Source: Candidatus Rifleibacteriota bacterium (GTDB lineage Bacteria; Muiribacteriota; Ozemobacteria; Ozemobacterales; Ozemobacteraceae). Taken from it: a DNA stretch of 64,000 nucleotides. Below are positions 4,532 through 55,459 of the stretch, piece after piece; positions within the stretch are counted from its first letter, which is position 1; each line of letters begins with the position of its first letter. The stretch covers positions 1-64,000 of the forward strand of contig JAAYVD010000022.1 in NCBI GenBank assembly GCA_012517355.1. Reading direction: 5' to 3'. The notes beneath the pieces are model-generated. The model was given only the letters and a program-made list of their open reading frames with translations. It was not told where the DNA came from and ran no database searches. Position numbers and translations under genes: made by a program.

Positions 4532-4603
4532 GGGTTCCTCCTTCCCCTCCTTTTCCGGCCAGGTCCAGGATACACCGGATCGTGAGGCGGAGGGCCGCCT
4601 GGT

Positions 4604-4845
4604 GATGCGGGAGCCAGGCGTTCGGCGCCGCCGCCCATGGCGACAACGGGGAAAAGGACGGAAGTCTCATGGCGGTCCCCTGTTGATGTGAGAGTCAGAC
4701 GTTCTTCTCCGCCGTCCGTGGCGGTCATGGGGGAAGGCCGGGCGCATCGTGTCGGCCCGCTGGCGATGCGCCAGTCGGGTGTTTCTCGCCGCCGTCCCTG
4801 GCGGCAAGGAGGACCTTCCGACGTCGTGTCGGCCGGCTCAGGGTG
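4604..4845. repeat. Three tandem degenerate copies of an ~80-bp GC-rich repeat
   Basis: Units begin at 4604, 4685 and 4765 (periods 81 and 80). Each opens with gatg(c/t)g, followed by (g/t)ccaggcgtt-type sequence, a gccgccgtccctggcgg-like core that can fold on itself, and an aaggaggac..tccgacg-type tail. The block fills the divergent gap between the DUF2877 gene and the radical SAM gene. The same core recurs near 15000, 43563 and 48603, so it belongs to an interspersed family. Confidence 0.65.
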
Positions 4846-4923
4846 AAGCCAGCCGGGGCTCAGCACGTATCCCGGAGGCATTCCGGGGTTGGCAACCGGT
4901 GGGCGTTGGGGTACGCTGGGGCC

Positions 4924-7659
4924 ATGACGAACCTGGTGCGCGATCCGGCGGCGATTCTGGCCTGGTGTGAAGGCAACCGGCGGTCTTTGTCCGGACACGG
5001 TCTGTGGTTCCTGGGCGGCGAGCCCAACACCCAAAACCCGGCCGGATTCGCCGCGGCGCGACTGCGGGTGCTGATCGTGCGGCTGTCGGAATACACCGAG
5101 GTGGCGGCGGGGATCACCCATTCCTACCTGCACCAGATGGCCGCCGGAGTCGAGGGGGTCTTCGTCGACCTGGCCTACCTTCCCCCGGCTCCCGACGAAA
5201 AGCGGATGCGCCAGGCGGGCATCCCGCTGCTGGTGGGGACCGGGTCCAAGCGGCCGCCGGCGGATTTCGAGGTGATCGCGATCAGCAATTCGGTCGTGCA
5301 GGAACTGGTGAACCTGCCGGCCCTGCTGGCCCATTCCGGGATCCCCCTCTCGCGGGAGGCCCGGGTGGCGGCGGGAGCGCCGTTCCTCCTGCTGGGGGGA
5401 AGCAACTCGTCGGTGGGAGCGATTCTGCACGGGCCGGTCGGGAAGGCCGAAGGCGGGGAAGGGCTCGTCGACGGGGTGATCGTCGGGGACGGGGAAGGGG
5501 CCTTTCCGCGGCTTTTGGAACTGGTGCGGGACATGCCGGGGGCCGCGCGCGTGGAGGTGCTGGCCCGCTTGCGACGTGAGGTTCCCGGATTCTACGACCC
5601 CGCCGCCTACCGACATGAGTATGCCGCCGGCCGATTGGCCAGGATCGTCCCCGCGCCGGGGGCCCCGTTTCCGGTGCGGGCCAACCGGGCCGACCTCGCC
5701 CGGCCGGAAACCGGGTTTGTACAAGGTCCGATTTTCTATCACGACCCGACGGCGGGCGCCTCGCACGTGCTGGTCACGGCCGGCTGTCCGTTCTTCTGTT
5801 CCTTCTGCAAGGAGTCCTGGGAGCAGAAACCCTACCGGGAAAGGCCCGTCGAGGCGGTGGCCGCCGACGCCCTGCGGCTGAAGGCCAACCTGGGACTGTC
5901 GGAGATCGCCCCGATGACGTTCAACCTGAACACCTACTCGGGGTTGTTGCCGATGCTGGCCGGATTCGACGGGTGGTTCGGCCGGGTGGCCCTGAAGAGC
6001 CAGCGTTTCGACGCCATCGCCCGCGACCCAGCCCTGCTCGAGCGGCAGCTCGAGGCGGGGAAGCGGACCTACACCTGTGCCATGGAGGGCATCAGTGACC
6101 GGTTGCGTTCGCTGTTGCAGAAGAACCTGCCGGAGGCGGTGCTGCGGAAGGGTTTCCAGGAGCTGTTCCGGAGGAACATCCGGCAGATGAAGGTGTTCGT
6201 GATCATCACCGGATGGGAGGAGGAGGCTGATTTCGCGGAGTTCGGGGGCCTGCTCGAGGGGTTGAAGAAGCAGATGGAGAGCTTGCGGGGGAAGCCGCAG
6301 CTGACCTTCTCGTTCGCCGTCCTGTTCCGGCCGCCGCGCACGCCCCTCCAGGCCATGCCGCGGAGCGGCGGGGAGGAGCGGTTGGCCTCCCTGCTGGCGC
6401 GGGGTCTGGCGGTGACGCGGAAAGCGGGGTTCGAGGCCAGAGTCAGTGCCGGACCGTCGGACGCGCTGGTCTCGGAATGGCTGGCATACGGAGATCGCCG
6501 GGACACGGCGGCGCTCGTGGATGCGTCTGTGGAACGGGGGTTCAGATACCGGGGCGAGTGCGGGTCCGACCTCTGGGAGTTCCTGCGGGGGCGGGGGGGC
6601 GGAAATCACGGGCCCGACGCGAAAGCACCGGTGGATGGCGCCCTGGCACCGGGTGAAACGCAGGTTCCCCCGCGGCTTCCGGGCCGGCAACCGGGCACCG
6701 GTGATTTGGACCGGGTCGGCCCCCAGGCGGTGCATGAAGCGGTGGTTGCGCGCCGCTCCCAAGGGGGGGGAGGGGTAACGATCGACACCCTCCCGGACGG
6801 GCCCTTCCCCTGGGATGACATCGATGTCGGTGTGGAATCGTCCTTCCTGGCAAAGAACCGGGAGGCTCTGGCGAGCGGGGCTTCCTGGGAGTCATGTCTC
6901 GCGCCTCCGCATGGGAAAGGGGTGTGCCTGGGGTGTGGGGCCTGTCGGTCGGTCGCCGAACGCAACGCCACGGTGAAGTGGAAGGCCAGGCCCTGGCCGG
7001 CACCGGAGACGGGAAAGGAGCCGAAGGTGTGCCGGTTCCGGGTGGAGGCGGTGGTCCCGCGCCGGTGGGCCGACTGCGGGAACGGGTTCCTGGCGGCGGC
7101 CCTGACCCGAATGTTGTTGCAGGGCGTGCCGGGGTGGGTTCCGGGATTCTGGCGTTTCGAACGGATGATGCCGCGGTGGGGGGCCTGGGGGTTGGTCTGG
7201 GGGGAGTTCGTGGTGCGGGGGGCGGGGGAGCCCTGGGAGCTGCCCGGGACCTGGCCCTTGCTGGAGGCCTGGGCAGGACCGCTGGTCATCCGGTCGGTGG
7301 TGCCGATCCAAAAGCCGGGCGAGGAGCCCGGCTGCCATCTTCGCATCGACCTGGGGGAGCCAGGGTCGGACCCCGGCAAGCGGGTGGACGCCTTCCTGCA
7401 GAAATACCGGCTGGCACACCAGAAACGGTGGGAGGGGGACACCCTGGGCTGGACGTTGCAGCCCGGGCATGCCAAAAAGTGCGGTCTGATCAGCATCGCC
7501 TGGCTGCGGGGGGCGGCGTTTCTGGACGTCCGGGCCACCCGGTGGCCGGAGCCCCATGTCTTGCCCGGGCTGGCGGGGGGTCATCCGGTCAGCGAGGTGG
7601 TGGCCTTCCTGCCAGAGGGGGGCGGGCCCCGGTCCTGCAACGGGCGGGGCCGGCGGTAG
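4924..7659 (+). CDS. Large radical SAM protein with C-terminal zinc-ribbon-like segment
   Basis: I chose the ATG at 4924. The frame is open further upstream, but that part lies in repeat sequence. The 911-residue protein has an N-terminal region (about 1-250) resembling the B12-binding-like half of TIGR03960-type proteins. The radical SAM cluster motif C288-x3-C292-x2-C295 (GCPFFCSFC) follows, with a barrel to about 560. Residues about 620-675 contain PWDDIDVGVESSFL and then CLGCGACR, which matches the conserved 'PWDHID..GVS' plus CxxC tail of TIGR03960 proteins. The last ~230 residues are unfamiliar and may be a diverged DUF2344-like partner domain. Residues about 565-620 are low-complexity and poorly protein-like, possibly an insertion. 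The substrate is unknown. Confidence 0.7.
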   Translation: MTNLVRDPAAILAWCEGNRRSLSGHGLWFLGGEPNTQNPAGFAAARLRVLIVRLSEYTEVAAGITHSYLHQMAAGVEGVFVDLAYLPPAPDEKRMRQAGIPLLVGTGSKRPPADFEVIAISNSVVQELVNLPALLAHSGIPLSREARVAAGAPFLLLGGSNSSVGAILHGPVGKAEGGEGLVDGVIVGDGEGAFPRLLELVRDMPGAARVEVLARLRREVPGFYDPAAYRHEYAAGRLARIVPAPGAPFPVRANRADLARPETGFVQGPIFYHDPTAGASHVLVTAGCPFFCSFCKESWEQKPYRERPVEAVAADALRLKANLGLSEIAPMTFNLNTYSGLLPMLAGFDGWFGRVALKSQRFDAIARDPALLERQLEAGKRTYTCAMEGISDRLRSLLQKNLPEAVLRKGFQELFRRNIRQMKVFVIITGWEEEADFAEFGGLLEGLKKQMESLRGKPQLTFSFAVLFRPPRTPLQAMPRSGGEERLASLLARGLAVTRKAGFEARVSAGPSDALVSEWLAYGDRRDTAALVDASVERGFRYRGECGSDLWEFLRGRGGGNHGPDAKAPVDGALAPGETQVPPRLPGRQPGTGDLDRVGPQAVHEAVVARRSQGGGGVTIDTLPDGPFPWDDIDVGVESSFLAKNREALASGASWESCLAPPHGKGVCLGCGACRSVAERNATVKWKARPWPAPETGKEPKVCRFRVEAVVPRRWADCGNGFLAAALTRMLLQGVPGWVPGFWRFERMMPRWGAWGLVWGEFVVRGAGEPWELPGTWPLLEAWAGPLVIRSVVPIQKPGEEPGCHLRIDLGEPGSDPGKRVDAFLQKYRLAHQKRWEGDTLGWTLQPGHAKKCGLISIAWLRGAAFLDVRATRWPEPHVLPGLAGGHPVSEVVAFLPEGGGPRSCNGRGRR

Positions 7660-12186: not shown

Positions 12187-12853
12187 AAGGCATGGGGAAG
12201 AAGGAGGAGGGGAAGAAAGGAATTGGGAAAGCCAGGAAACATGGAAGGAGAAGCGGAGGAAGAAACAGACCAAGGCGAAGAAGGAGAAAGAGCATCAGGA
12301 GGAGGAGAAGAAAGAGGGGGGAAGGAGGCGGAGAAGGAGAAGGGGTAGACGGAGGAGGGCGCGAAAAAGGAGGAGAAGAAGAAGGAGAAGAAGGAGAAGG
12401 GGAAGCAGGAGAAGAAGAAGGAAAAGGGGAAGTAGGAGAAGAAGAAAGAGAAGAAGAAAGAGCAGGAGAAGGAGGAGAAAAAGAAGGAGAAGAAAAAGAA
12501 GGAGAAGAAGAAAGAGAAGGAGAAGGAGGAGGAGAAGGAGGGAAGAAAGAGAGAAGAAAGCGAAAGAGAAGGAAAACAGGGCGAGGCAAAGGGAAAAGAA
12601 AAGAGGAACGGAAGGAAAGGGGAAATGGGGAAGGTGGGGAAGGGGCGAGCGGGGAGGGGAGTTCGAGGGGGGAAGAGAGGAACGGCGGAGAGTGAGCAAG
12701 AGTGGGGGTGGGGGTTTGTGGCCGGGAGAGGCGGAGACGGTTGTGAAGGCGAGATGGAAGGGAGGATTGAAGGGGCGGGAGGAGCGGGGAGGGGAGTTTG
12801 GGGGGGAAGAGAGGACCGGCAGCGAGTGAGGAAGAGTGGGGGTGGGGGGGCTT
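12187..12853. repeat. ~660-bp homopurine/homopyrimidine low-complexity tract
   Basis: The plus strand is almost entirely A and G: irregular gaa/gag/gga runs with only scattered pyrimidines between about 12360 and 12660, then G-rich with runs of five or more G to 12853. Frames through it encode only Glu/Gly/Lys/Arg on one strand or Ser/Leu/Phe/Pro on the other, with no ribosome site, so I regard it as noncoding. It sits between the hydrogenase terminator and the glcD start. Such tracts can adopt triplex or G-quadruplex structure. Confidence 0.85.
12651..12852. repeat. Pair of ~66-bp direct repeats at the 3' end of the purine tract
   Basis: The segment at 12651-12716 (starting ggggaggggagtt) recurs at 12786-12852 with few changes, an offset of 135 bases. 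Both copies end in agtgggggtggggg, a G-run cluster able to contribute to a quadruplex. The second copy ends about 48 bases before the glcD ATG. Confidence 0.7.
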
Positions 12854-12899
12854 TCCCTGTCGGGGGTTCCGGGATAGAATGGCCCGACGAGGGGTGCCT

Positions 12900-14276
12900 A
12901 TGACCATTCCTGAACGGGTGTTGCGCCAGTTTGCCGACGAAGTCGGCCCCGAGCTTTTCTCGGCCGATCCCGTGAGCCTGGTGATGCATTCCTACGATGC
13001 CACCAATGAGTTCGTCGTCCCGGCCGGGATCGTGCGGCCGCGTGCCGCCCCGGAGGTCGCCCGGATCCTGGCGGCGGCCAATCGGCTGGGAGTGCCGCTC
13101 GTCCCCCGGGGCGCGGGAACGGGGTTTTCCGGGGGCGCCTTGCCGGAGCGGGGAGGCGTGGTCCTGGACCTGTTGGGGTTGAACCGCGTTCTCGATCTCG
13201 ACGAGGCGGCCATGACCGTCACGGTGGAGCCGGGAGTCGTCACCCTGCACCTGCAGGACCTGGTGGGGAAGAAGGGGTTGTTCTACCCTCCCGACCCGGC
13301 CTCCCTCAAGGTTTGTACGATCGGTGGAAATGTGGCAGAGAATGCCGGCGGGCCACACTGCGTCAAATACGGGGTGACACGGGACTACGTGATGGTGGTC
13401 GATGGTTTCACCGCCGACGGACGGCCGTTGCGGGCAGGCAAGGCCACTTTGAAGAACCGTGCCGGCTACGACCTCAAGGATCTGCTGATCGGCAGCGAGG
13501 GGACCCTGGCGGTGTTCACCTCGTTCGTTCTCCGGCTGATTCCACGGCCCGAGGCGACCGTGCTGTTCGTCGCGTTCTTCCCCGATTTCAACGCGGCGAC
13601 GTCCATGGTGAACACCCTGTTCCGGGCGGGAATCACCCCTTCCAGCATGGAGTTCATGGACGGGTCGGCCATCCGGGCGGTCGAACGGCACGCGAAGTTC
13701 GGATTGCCTCTGCAATACCAGGCGCTGCTGCTGATCGAGGTCGATGGTCGGGCCGACGAGATGGACAGGGTGCGCCGGAGGACGGAGGAGATCCTTTCGG
13801 CAGGGGCCGCCGAGGTGCGGGTGGCCGTTTCCGCTGAGGAGCAGGCAGCCCTGTGGGAGATCAGGCGCAAGGCCAGCCCGGCGATGCGTGCCTTCGGCAA
13901 CAAGAAGGCGAACGAGGACATCGTGGTGCCCCGGCAGCACATCCCTGCCACTATCCGCGGTTTGCGGGAGATCGCCGACCGCCATCGCCTGAACCTGATC
14001 GCCTTCGGCCACATCGGGGACGGGAACATCCACGTCAACATCATGTATGACGGCCAGGATCCGGATGAAACCGGTCGGGTTGAGGTGGCCATCCGCGAAG
14101 TGTTCGACCTGGTCAACCGGTACGAAGGGGCGGTGTCCGGGGAGCACGGGATCGGACTGTCGAAGAAACCCTACCTGCCCGCCAACCTCGACCCGGTTTG
14201 TTACGACCTGATGCGGTCGATCAAGCGGGTATTCGACCCCAACAACATTCTCAATCCGTACAAGATGTTTTACTGA
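12900..14276 (+). CDS. glcD: GlcD-like FAD-dependent glycolate/D-lactate dehydrogenase
   Basis: The 458-residue length and motifs fit the GlcD/vanillyl-alcohol-oxidase FAD family. PRGAGTGFSGGALP and IGGNVAENAGGPHCVKYGV bind the FAD pyrophosphate. FGHIGDGNIHVN and SGEHGIGLSKKPYL are the conserved C-terminal catalytic segments. It oxidises a 2-hydroxyacid such as glycolate or D-lactate, passing electrons to an Fe-S partner. That partner is probably the next plus-strand gene, 334 bp downstream. The ATG at 12900 is preceded by GAGGGG. The substrate cannot be decided from the sequence. Confidence 0.85.
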   Translation: MTIPERVLRQFADEVGPELFSADPVSLVMHSYDATNEFVVPAGIVRPRAAPEVARILAAANRLGVPLVPRGAGTGFSGGALPERGGVVLDLLGLNRVLDLDEAAMTVTVEPGVVTLHLQDLVGKKGLFYPPDPASLKVCTIGGNVAENAGGPHCVKYGVTRDYVMVVDGFTADGRPLRAGKATLKNRAGYDLKDLLIGSEGTLAVFTSFVLRLIPRPEATVLFVAFFPDFNAATSMVNTLFRAGITPSSMEFMDGSAIRAVERHAKFGLPLQYQALLLIEVDGRADEMDRVRRRTEEILSAGAAEVRVAVSAEEQAALWEIRRKASPAMRAFGNKKANEDIVVPRQHIPATIRGLREIADRHRLNLIAFGHIGDGNIHVNIMYDGQDPDETGRVEVAIREVFDLVNRYEGAVSGEHGIGLSKKPYLPANLDPVCYDLMRSIKRVFDPNNILNPYKMFY

Positions 14277-14610: not shown

Positions 14611-16311
14611 ATGAAACCGAAGCCGGTTGAGGTCCTCTGGCAGTTGCTGCGCGACCAGTTGGCGGCCTGCGTGAAATGCGGGGCCTGCCTGGCATTCTGT
14701 CCGCTGTATGGCCAGGAAAGACGGGAAGGGGCCTCCATGCGGGGAAAGATCGCCTTGTTGCAGGCATGGCTGGTTTCGCGCGGCGCCGAACCGGCGGCCG
14801 GGGGATCGCGCGGGGCAGGGGACCACCCTCGAGCGGTGCGCGAAACCGGGGTTTCGCGCGGCGTCGACCCGGCGGACGGCCGGCCGCGTGAAGTAGGGGA
14901 CCACCTTCGAGTGGTGCGCGAAACGGGGGTTTCTCGCGGCGTCGACCCGGCGGCGGGCCGGGCGCGTGGAGCAGGGGACGACCTTCGAGTGATACGCGAA
15001 ACCCAGGGTCCGCCCCGCCCTCCGTGGTGGCAACGGGGTCTGGCTGACATCCTGCCGGTCGGCCCGTTTTTCGATGGGGAAACTGGCGTGTCGCGCCGAT
15101 CTCTGGAGGCGCCGGGTGGACTGTCGGCCATCCGGTCGGGCGGGCGCCTGGCTGTCCCTCCCGGCGATCTGCGCGAGGCCCTCTCGTTCTGCACCGGGTG
15201 CCAGAGCTGCCGGGCCACTTGCCCGAACGGGGTGGACACGTGCCTGGTGACGCTGCTCGGCCGGCTGCTCCTTCCCAAGAGCCCTCTCCAGGCCTGGAAG
15301 GAATGGGGGTGCTCCCTCCTCGCCCGGTGGCCCTGGGGGCGGCGGTTTCTCGGGCGGATGCTGTTCGGGCCAGCTGGTCCTGGTGGCCGGGGGGGCGGAG
15401 ACGGCAGCCTCGGCGCCGGTCGGCGGGAACCCGAGGCCGGCCAGGGGTTGGCGGGCGGGAGGAGCGGCGCCCCGGAAGCCAATCCAGGGAAGCCTGGTGG
15501 GGCGTCCGAGGTCGGCATGGAGGGGGCTTCGGAAGCCAGTCCGGTGGGCGGTTCCCGGGCCAAGGGGCCGGGTCTGGCTGGGCCCGTGGTCCTGGTGCCG
15601 GGCTTCCGCCTGGCCCGGTTCCCGCATCTGGTGGAAGCCGCGGCCAACCTGATGGCCGCTTGCGGCGGTGGCGAACGGCCCACCGTGGAGACGGCGTGGT
15701 GCGGGGAGTTGGCGCTCGAGATTCCCGATCTCGAAGGGTATTCCCGGCAGCTGGGGGCCTGGCTGGAAACCATTGGCCGCCATGCCCCCGGCCGGATCGT
15801 CGTGGCGTGCCCGCACTGTCTGGAAGCGTTGGGTCGGGCTCGCGACCTGTGCGAGGCCTCTTCCGGCGAAGCCCGGTTGCTCGACCGGGTGACCGATCTC
15901 TACTCCTGGTTGCGCGAGGCAGGGTTCCGCCCGGTATCACAGGGCGACGCGCCCGCCATCCTGTTGGACGTCTGTGCCAACCGCAAAGACAAAGCCATGA
16001 GCCGCGCGGCCCGGGAGCTGTTGGGCCGGTGCCGGCCGAGCGGGGTGGAGGAGCCCGCCGTGACGGGTGGGGGGTGCACCTGCCGGGGCGGCTTCGGGGG
16101 GAGGTTTCCCTCGGTGGCCCGGACTCTACGCCGGCGGGTGGACGGCGGGGGAAGGGAACGGGGCAGCGAAGAGTTGGTGACGGTGTGCGCCAGTTGCCTG
16201 CGCGCCTGGAAGGGGACGCGGGGTGGCCGGGTGGTGCACCTGATCGAGGTGCTGGGCGGTGGGGCGGGGGGCCGTTCGGGGCCCCGCCCCTTGAATGGGG
16301 GAGCGGTCTGA
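14611..16311 (+). CDS. GlcF-like iron-sulfur protein with repeat expansions
   Basis: The 566-residue protein begins with a ferredoxin motif C20-x2-C23-x2-C26-x3-C30-P (CVKCGACLAFCP) and has a second motif, CTGCQSCRATCP, at about 194-206, as in the glycolate oxidase iron-sulfur subunit GlcF. Between them sit three tandem 26-residue copies (residues 55-132, units containing RETGVSRGVDPA) followed by another repeat-derived stretch to about 170. A second low-complexity Gly/Ala/Ser insert lies at about 250-325. The C-terminal cysteines (CPHCLEALG, DVCANRKDK, GGGCTCRGG, CASCLRAWKG) echo the CCG domain but lack the canonical CCG-type spacing. It is likely the electron-accepting partner of the upstream GlcD-like protein. 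Confidence 0.72.
   Translation: MKPKPVEVLWQLLRDQLAACVKCGACLAFCPLYGQERREGASMRGKIALLQAWLVSRGAEPAAGGSRGAGDHPRAVRETGVSRGVDPADGRPREVGDHLRVVRETGVSRGVDPAAGRARGAGDDLRVIRETQGPPRPPWWQRGLADILPVGPFFDGETGVSRRSLEAPGGLSAIRSGGRLAVPPGDLREALSFCTGCQSCRATCPNGVDTCLVTLLGRLLLPKSPLQAWKEWGCSLLARWPWGRRFLGRMLFGPAGPGGRGGGDGSLGAGRREPEAGQGLAGGRSGAPEANPGKPGGASEVGMEGASEASPVGGSRAKGPGLAGPVVLVPGFRLARFPHLVEAAANLMAACGGGERPTVETAWCGELALEIPDLEGYSRQLGAWLETIGRHAPGRIVVACPHCLEALGRARDLCEASSGEARLLDRVTDLYSWLREAGFRPVSQGDAPAILLDVCANRKDKAMSRAARELLGRCRPSGVEEPAVTGGGCTCRGGFGGRFPSVARTLRRRVDGGGRERGSEELVTVCASCLRAWKGTRGGRVVHLIEVLGGGAGGRSGPRPLNGGAV
14773..15006 (+). repeat. 78-bp tandem triplication inside a coding region
   Basis: Three copies begin at 14773, 14851 and 14929, each exactly 78 bp (26 codons), so the reading frame is kept. 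Each contains the palindromic core gcgaaaccggggtttcgcgc or a close variant and a gaccaccttcgag-type element. It lies within the GlcF-like gene between its two ferredoxin motifs. Confidence 0.85.
15007..15090 (+). repeat. In-gene copy of the interspersed ~75-bp repeat
   Basis: The sequence cgccctccgtggtggcaacggg... through ctgccggtcggccc resembles the repeat copies at 4765, 43563 and 48603. It follows the 78-bp triplication directly and stays in frame inside the GlcF-like gene. Confidence 0.5.
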
Positions 16312-43511: not shown

Positions 43512-43562
43512 TCCCGGCTATCACCCGGGCCGGTCGATAAAACGGTCTGGGGAAGCGGGCCC

Positions 43563-43640
43563 CCTGGCGATGCCCGAAACGGGCGCTTCGCGCCGCCATC
43601 CGCGGCGGCAAGGGATCCTTCCGACCCCTGCCGACCGGTT
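43563..43640. repeat. Interspersed ~75-bp GC-rich repeat copy
   Basis: This runs from cccgaaacgggcgcttcgcg through ccgccatccgcggcggcaag and ends ccgacccctgccgaccggt. It is the same family as 4604-4845, 15007-15090 and 48603-48680. It ends directly at the 3' end of the aldolase fusion gene. Confidence 0.6.
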
Positions 43641-50052: not shown

Positions 50053-50078
50053 CCACCCCTCTGCGGGGCGCGAAACCC

Positions 50079-50097
50079 GGGGTTTCGCGGGCTGTCC
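50079..50097. repeat. Palindrome of the gcgaaaccggggtttcgc type
   Basis: The near-perfect palindrome gcgaaacccggggtttcgcg also occurs inside the 78-bp repeats of the GlcF-like gene (for example 14839-14859), 35 kb away. It lies 27 bp after the PLP-enzyme stop. Confidence 0.55.
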
Positions 50098-55084: not shown

Positions 55085-55333
55085 CCCCCCCTCCCAAGGC
55101 CAAAACCACCCCGCGTTTCCGCATTGCCGGTTTGGCGTGGGTCGGGAGACGGGGGCCTTTCCCTCAGGAGCGAAAGTTCGCCGCGGTATCCCCTTGCCGA
55201 CCTGGTGTCGATCGGGAGACGGGGGCCGCCCCCCCAGGGGCAAGGGCACGCCTCGGTTCCTCGTTGCCGGTCTGGCGCGGATCGAGAGACGGGCGCTTTC
55301 CCCCCAAGGGCAAACGCACCCCTCGTTTCCCCT
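55085..55333. repeat. 70-bp tandem repeat, three full copies plus a partial one
   Basis: Full copies begin at 55124, 55194 and 55264, each exactly 70 bp. They share ttgccgg..tggcg, gatcgggagacggggg and a c-run/aagggcaa-type tail. A partial copy precedes at about 55085. The block is in the 431-bp gap before the rhomboid gene, and no spacer structure is seen. Confidence 0.85.
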
Positions 55334-55343
55334 CCCGCGGGCC

Positions 55344-55422
55344 TTGGCGAACCTGCCGATGGGCAACATGCCGATGGGCAAACCTGCCGATTGGCGAACC
55401 TGCCGAACGGCGAACATGCCGA
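55344..55422. repeat. 16-bp tandem repeat, five copies
   Basis: Units of the form ttggcgaacctgccga (55344, 55360, 55375, 55391, 55407; one copy is 15 bp) follow the 70-bp repeats directly and stop 37 bases before the rhomboid ATG. They could affect its 5' untranslated region. Confidence 0.88.
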
Positions 55423-55459
55423 TTGCGGGCGGGCGCGGATTGGGATACCCTGGACCGGC

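What the first reader, a model, noticed from the sequence alone, without database searches (positions are those of the whole stretch)
14773..15006. Frame-preserving 78-bp triplication inserted between two ferredoxin motifs
Three copies of exactly 26 codons lie between the cysteine motifs of the GlcF-like protein. The repeat core is the same palindrome found in intergenic DNA at 50079-50097. An interspersed noncoding repeat seems to have invaded a coding region and amplified without breaking the frame, adding an Arg/Gly-rich spacer between two iron-sulfur clusters that should exchange electrons.
Basis: partly seen in the sequence, partly recalled or inferred. Interest (0 to 1): 0.6.

Follow-up and report, generated by a model that had tools for sequence, protein, structure and literature searches.

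The report
Palindromic repeat inserted inside bacterial gene
A short palindromic DNA repeat, present in an estimated 900 units in one uncultured Ozemobacteraceae (Riflebacteria) genome, has landed in the reading frame of an iron-sulfur enzyme gene and multiplied there, adding 123 amino acids that its relatives lack; the same repeat sits in frame inside other genes too, as Rickettsia palindromic elements do in an unrelated bacterium.

Summary
A GlcF-like gene (14611-16311 +) carries three 78-bp tandem units (14772-15005). They are part of one 369-bp, exactly 123-codon insertion (14773-15141). In register with a genome-wide repeat it reads 51+78+78+81+81 bp. Six orthologues from relatives, two of the same genus, have 51 (five) or 55 (one) residues between the two cysteine motifs, against 174 here. 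The inserted units belong to, or derive from, an 81/84-bp palindromic repeat that folds as a Y plus a hairpin. It has 295 units in 2.35 Mb of this 7.1-Mb genome, five weak matches in one congener, and none detected in 35 other genomes. The family mostly lies between genes, but about 11% of clusters have coding flanks in one continuous frame. Orthologues lacking the insert confirm four more genes (NadB, an N-acylglucosamine-2-epimerase-like protein with two sites, an ABC1 kinase-like protein, and a radical-SAM-like gene in this window). The kind of thing is known (protein-coding palindromic elements such as RPE); this is an unrelated family with in-gene, frame-keeping tandem growth. How it moves, and whether the protein works, are unknown.

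The parts
14611..16311 (+). GlcF-like iron-sulfur protein, 566 aa, with the insertion; orthologous start MKP
14668..14703 (+). first 4Fe-4S motif CVKCGACLAFCP
14773..15141 (+). whole lineage-specific insertion, 369 bp = 123 codons (end points fitted to the repeat register; the length follows from orthologues: 174 minus 51 residues)
14773..14823 (+). 5'-truncated unit, 51 bp, in the register of the genome family
14824..14901 (+). 78-bp variant unit (covariance match 14825-14918, 29.7 bits)
14902..14979 (+). 78-bp variant unit
14980..15060 (+). 81-bp family unit (nhmmer 5e-11 at 14988-15059; covariance model 41.2 bits at 14981-15061)
15061..15141 (+). degenerate 81-bp family unit, ending at the usual GGTCGG terminus
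15190..15225 (+). second 4Fe-4S motif CTGCQSCRATCP
12798..14276 (+). GlcD-like FAD oxidase subunit gene upstream (open frame; the true start is probably inside); the same neighbour lies upstream in congeners
6640..6799 (+). two degenerate family units in frame inside a radical-SAM-like gene (4843-7659), absent from orthologues in several genera of the family
4594..4835 (+). three tandem family units at the 5' side of the radical-SAM-like gene
43559..43637 (+). single family unit, 55.7 bits

Best explanation
The insertion is a tandem array of a non-autonomous, palindromic mobile-type DNA element (an 81/84-bp unit forming a Y-shaped fold plus a terminal hairpin). It entered the GlcF-like gene after this species split from its sequenced congeners. 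Steps: (1) an element inserted in frame in the loop between the two 4Fe-4S motifs; (2) an internally altered 78-bp variant arose and was multiplied by slippage or unequal recombination between head-to-tail copies, which kept the frame because each unit is a multiple of three and stop-free in the frame used; (3) selection removed insertions that broke the frame; (4) the 123-residue Arg/Gly-rich peptide is tolerated as a disordered loop. The lineage-specific in-frame insertion and the array are shown by sequence comparison. The order of events, the slippage mechanism, the role of selection and the tolerance of the protein are inferred.
For: Orthologues in two congeners and four other relatives lack the segment; motif spacing is 51 (five) or 55 (one) against 174, a difference of exactly 123 residues from the common spacing. 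The 369-bp segment divides without remainder into 51+78+78+81+81 bp in the family register. Family in this genome: 254 places within 3 mismatches of a 34-base core, none in 56 other genomes, backward control 0; 295 units in 2.35 Mb, 0 in the reversed sequence. The fold is better than all 200 shuffles with compensatory changes (27 cells against 14.1 in shuffles, 0 of 500). 73 of 75 adjacent units are head-to-tail; periods 81 (36) and 84 (10) dominate. Orthologues lack the insert in NadB, the epimerase-like protein (two sites), the ABC1-like protein and the radical-SAM-like protein. 24 of 217 scored clusters have coding flanks in one continuous frame (23 open) against 5 in shifted frames. AlphaFold places residues 60-178 below pLDDT 50 while the helices on both sides, 43-56 and 184-196, are predicted better. 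Flanking Fe-S codons are constrained (pN 0.29, pS 0.64); inserted units are not clearly so (pN about equal to pS).
Against: Only the 24-bp hairpin of the 78-bp variant is significantly like the family by pairwise alignment; the covariance score is modest. No transposase could be tied to the element: the single Y1 transposase gene (C109:4060-4854) has no family copy beside it. Target-site duplication could not be shown. No transcript or protein data; the GlcF gene evolves faster than between congeners and lacks one Cys of a CCG motif, so loss of function is possible.
Confidence: 0.85

Rival explanations
1. An ordinary intragenic minisatellite: a coding segment of the gene itself was triplicated by replication slippage, and the likeness to the interspersed repeat is incidental.
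For: The three 78-bp units are found at no other place in the 1.2 Mb searched, and outside the hairpin they are not pairwise similar to the family.
Against: The array runs straight into two recognisable 81-bp family units, the hairpin core is shared, and the whole 369 bp is absent from orthologues, so the unit is not ancestral gene sequence.
Confidence: 0.1
2. The gene is a decaying pseudogene or not translated; the insertion is tolerated because the protein no longer matters. (This bears on the last step only and can be true together with the best explanation of the insert's origin.)
For: Higher dN than between congeners (0.60 and 0.63 against 0.30) and loss of one Cys in a CCG motif seen in congeners.
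Against: An open frame of 566 codons with all eight Fe-S cysteines, gene order with GlcD and RNase HII kept, clear excess of third-position changes in the Fe-S domain, and in-frame insertions also in NadB and others.
Confidence: 0.2
3. A functional domain was acquired between the two clusters to modulate electron transfer or bind a partner.
For: It lies exactly between the two cluster motifs and is basic.
Against: Low predicted order, no codon-level constraint among units, no Pfam domain in it, and the same peptide in unrelated proteins.
Confidence: 0.04
4. Metagenome assembly artefact.
For: The genome is an incomplete draft of 184 contigs.
Against: Units differ at 15-22% of positions, so they are not collapsed or duplicated reads; the same family recurs in many contigs and genes.
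Confidence: 0.02

Closest known systems
Rickettsia palindromic elements (RPE; Ogata et al. 2000, described in PMC2229807 and PMC10969869)
   Same: Short palindromic repeat, high copy, both between genes and in frame inside unrelated conserved genes; open frames; strong stem-loop fold; no transposase of its own known.
   Different: 81/84 bp instead of 105-146 bp; GC-rich; in a Riflebacteria-lineage genome instead of Rickettsia, and not detected outside its genus in the genomes searched; head-to-tail tandem growth, including inside a gene.
ERIC, Correia/NEMIS and other bacterial MITEs (PMC2229807)
   Same: Non-autonomous, fold into long stem-loops, some fused in frame to genes.
   Different: No 5'-TA ends or demonstrable target-site duplication here; the unit forms direct tandem arrays.
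REP / BIME elements with RAYT transposases (PMC3733652)
   Same: Short palindromes at high copy, mostly between genes; one Y1 transposase gene exists in the genome.
   Different: REPs are 20-40 bp, GTAG- or CGTC-tagged, paired mostly head-head or tail-tail and often next to RAYT genes; here units are 81-84 bp, head-to-tail, and none lies beside the Y1 gene.
Intragenic minisatellites
   Same: Tandem coding units, multiple of three.
   Different: The units here derive, at least in part, from an interspersed repeat and are absent from orthologues.

Membership tests
Protein-coding palindromic elements (RPE-like) | Interspersed palindromic repeat at high copy in one lineage | tested here: met
   254 close core matches in own genome, 0 in 56 others; 295 units in 2.35 Mb; covariance model finds 5 weak matches in one congener (at most 125 candidates per genome scored)
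Protein-coding palindromic elements (RPE-like) | In-frame insertion in conserved genes, orthologues without it | tested here: met
   GlcF, NadB, epimerase-like (two sites), ABC1-like, radical-SAM-like
Protein-coding palindromic elements (RPE-like) | Stable stem-loop structure | tested here: met
   compensatory changes
Protein-coding palindromic elements (RPE-like) | Host protein is translated and active with the insert (shown for one Rickettsia enzyme) | not testable with these tools
   no expression data
RPE proper (Rickettsia families) | 105-146 bp unit found in Rickettsia | tested here: not met
   Unit is 81/84 bp and lies in a Riflebacteria-lineage genome
RPE proper (Rickettsia families) | Sequence homology to a described RPE family | not tested
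   no RPE sequence was compared directly
REP/BIME | 20-40 bp units, mostly inverted (head-head or tail-tail) dimers | tested here: not met
   81-84 bp units; 73 of 75 adjacent pairs are direct
REP/BIME | RAYT gene flanked by the repeat | tested here: not met
   One Y1_Tnp gene; nearest family copy about 6.5 kb away
MITE | Terminal inverted repeats and target-site duplication | tested here: inconclusive
   GCCCCTTTGC/GCAAAGGGGC stem is present; flanks show no clear duplication

The most novel reading that the evidence does not exclude
The element is itself shaped for life inside genes: unit lengths are multiples of three even outside genes, the consensus is stop-free in all six frames, and in-gene copies are read in preferred frames, so selfish palindromes and host proteins have co-adapted in a phylum where I found no report of this.
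Probability: 0.2. Interest if true: 0.7.

Novelty: new member of a known kind. Interest (0 to 1): 0.5.

Why it matters
In-frame palindromic elements are best known from Rickettsia and Wolbachia, reduced intracellular genomes. A high-copy family doing the same in a 7-Mb, GC-rich genome of an uncultured phylum suggests that coding invasion by selfish palindromes is not a by-product of genome reduction. Several empty/filled gene pairs make it possible to test what such peptides do to enzymes, and the GlcF case puts 123 residues between two clusters of a dicluster domain, a direct test of how tolerant that domain is.

Tried and rejected
Conserved domain at the site: rejected by orthologues. The 78-bp unit as a separate interspersed family: no other copy in 1.2 Mb. 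Known RNA family: no Rfam match above chance. RAYT/REP origin: only one Y1 gene, not flanked by copies. Target-site duplication: a near match GCATGGCTG/GCCTGGCTG at the two ends was dropped because the orthologous sequence explains it as well. Long open frames as evidence of coding: rejected, since in a 68% GC genome most frames are open; a codon model, Pfam and orthologues were used instead. The codon model missed the GlcF gene, so the in-gene share is probably underestimated. Six-frame freedom from stops: 2.8% of shuffles have it, so it is only weak evidence of adaptation. The frame bias (9, 6, 5, 2, 1, 0 over six frames, Monte Carlo p about 0.009) is post hoc and some sites share a gene.

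Full report
What is there. The array is real: three 78-bp units, 84% matches, no indels, at 14772-15003, inside an open frame that encodes a GlcF-like protein from 14611. Pfam finds a 4Fe-4S dicluster domain (Fer4_8 and relatives) in two pieces, one on each side of the array. The coordinates given are right; the intergenic palindrome cited is really at 50069-50089 and shares only the hairpin.

The insertion is bigger than the array. Orthologues were found in the two congeners and in four other genomes of the same family. In all six the middle of the window protein, roughly residues 56-180, is missing. Counting from the first cysteine motif to the second gives 51 residues in five orthologues, 55 in one and 174 here. 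The difference from the common spacing is exactly 123 residues, or 369 bp. In congeners GlcD lies upstream and RNase HII downstream, as here, so these are true orthologues. Records in a named collection place the relatives in Candidatus Ozemobacteraceae / Riflebacteria; the window's own record was not named.

The insertion is made of a genome repeat. The hairpin core has 56 matches in the genome within two mismatches (both strands; some palindromic places count twice), and none when read backwards. A 34-base core occurs at 254 places in this genome and nowhere in 56 others. A profile finds 174 units in 1.20 Mb and 295 units in 220 clusters in 2.35 Mb, with no hit in reversed sequence. That projects to roughly 900 units in 7.1 Mb, with the caution that large contigs known to hold copies were sampled. 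A covariance model finds five weak matches in congener G002 and none in G001 or 34 other genomes, although at most 125 candidates per genome were scored. The unit is 81 or 84 bp, folds as a stem with two hairpin arms plus a separate hairpin, and shows compensatory changes above shuffles and above slid controls. Its consensus is stop-free in all six frames, which 2.8% of shuffles also are.

In the register of this family the 369 bp read as 51 + 78 + 78 + 81 + 81 bp. The fourth unit is a clear family member (E 5e-11; 41.2 bits), the fifth a degenerate one that ends at the family's usual GGTCGG terminus. The 78-bp units share the 24-bp hairpin exactly or nearly so. The remaining 54 bp are not significantly similar by pairwise alignment, but the covariance model aligns a 78-bp unit over its whole length with 29.7 bits, E 0.0018. 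I read them as an internally altered family unit that was then multiplied; this step is inference.

Other in-frame copies. Most clusters lie outside genes: with a codon model, 90 of 217 scored clusters have noncoding flanks on both sides, against 6% of random positions, and 24 (11%) have coding flanks in one continuous frame, against 51% of random positions; 23 of these are open through the element. Only 5 clusters have coding flanks on one strand in shifted frames. Orthologues verify four further genes: L-aspartate oxidase NadB, an N-acylglucosamine-2-epimerase-like protein with two insertions, an ABC1-like kinase and a radical-SAM-like protein in this same window at 6640-6799. A GAF domain is also matched across a copy. 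The same peptide (RETGVSRRHPWRQRG and variants) therefore sits in unrelated proteins. Six reading frames are not used equally (9, 6, 5, 2, 1, 0; p about 0.009), a post hoc result that needs a whole-genome test.

What it does to the protein. AlphaFold with five sequences gives residues 60-178 pLDDT below 50, while the flanking helices (43-56, 184-196) are predicted with better confidence; this is a shallow alignment. The Fe-S domain is under purifying selection relative to congeners (pN 0.29, pS 0.64), whereas the three units differ about equally at synonymous and nonsynonymous sites. The best reading is a tolerated, disordered loop. The gene as a whole evolves faster than between the two congeners, so weakened function cannot be excluded.

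How it compares. The nearest known thing is the Rickettsia palindromic element: a palindromic repeat found in frame in conserved genes, for which one enzyme (guanylate kinase) was shown to be translated and active (PMC2229807; PMC10969869). The behaviour matches; the unit size, host and tandem habit differ, and sequence homology was not compared directly. REP/BIME elements are shorter, tagged, mostly inverted pairs and tied to RAYT genes (PMC3733652), and these tests were not met. A search of the open paper library for Riflebacteria or Ozemobacter listed no paper whose title or abstract reports this repeat. Hence: a new member of a known kind, in a new lineage, with a good set of empty/filled gene pairs.

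Noticed in passing
window 6640-6799: Two degenerate copies of the same repeat lie in frame inside a radical-SAM-like gene (4843-7659); orthologues in several genera lack about 50 residues there.
   Followed up: yes
window 4594-4835: Three tandem repeat units at the 5' side of that radical-SAM-like gene.
   Followed up: partly
window 12277-12573: Long GAA/GGA-rich purine tract (several overlapping tandem periods) upstream of the GlcD-like gene.
   Followed up: no
window 55101-55330: Another 70-bp tandem repeat of 3.3 copies, and a 16-bp one at 55346-55423.
   Followed up: no
G000 C109:4060-4854 (L159): The only Y1 (HUH) transposase-like gene found in the genome; not flanked by the repeat.
   Followed up: partly
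window 15698-15706: The GlcF-like protein has WCG where congeners have CCG in the first CCG motif.
   Followed up: partly
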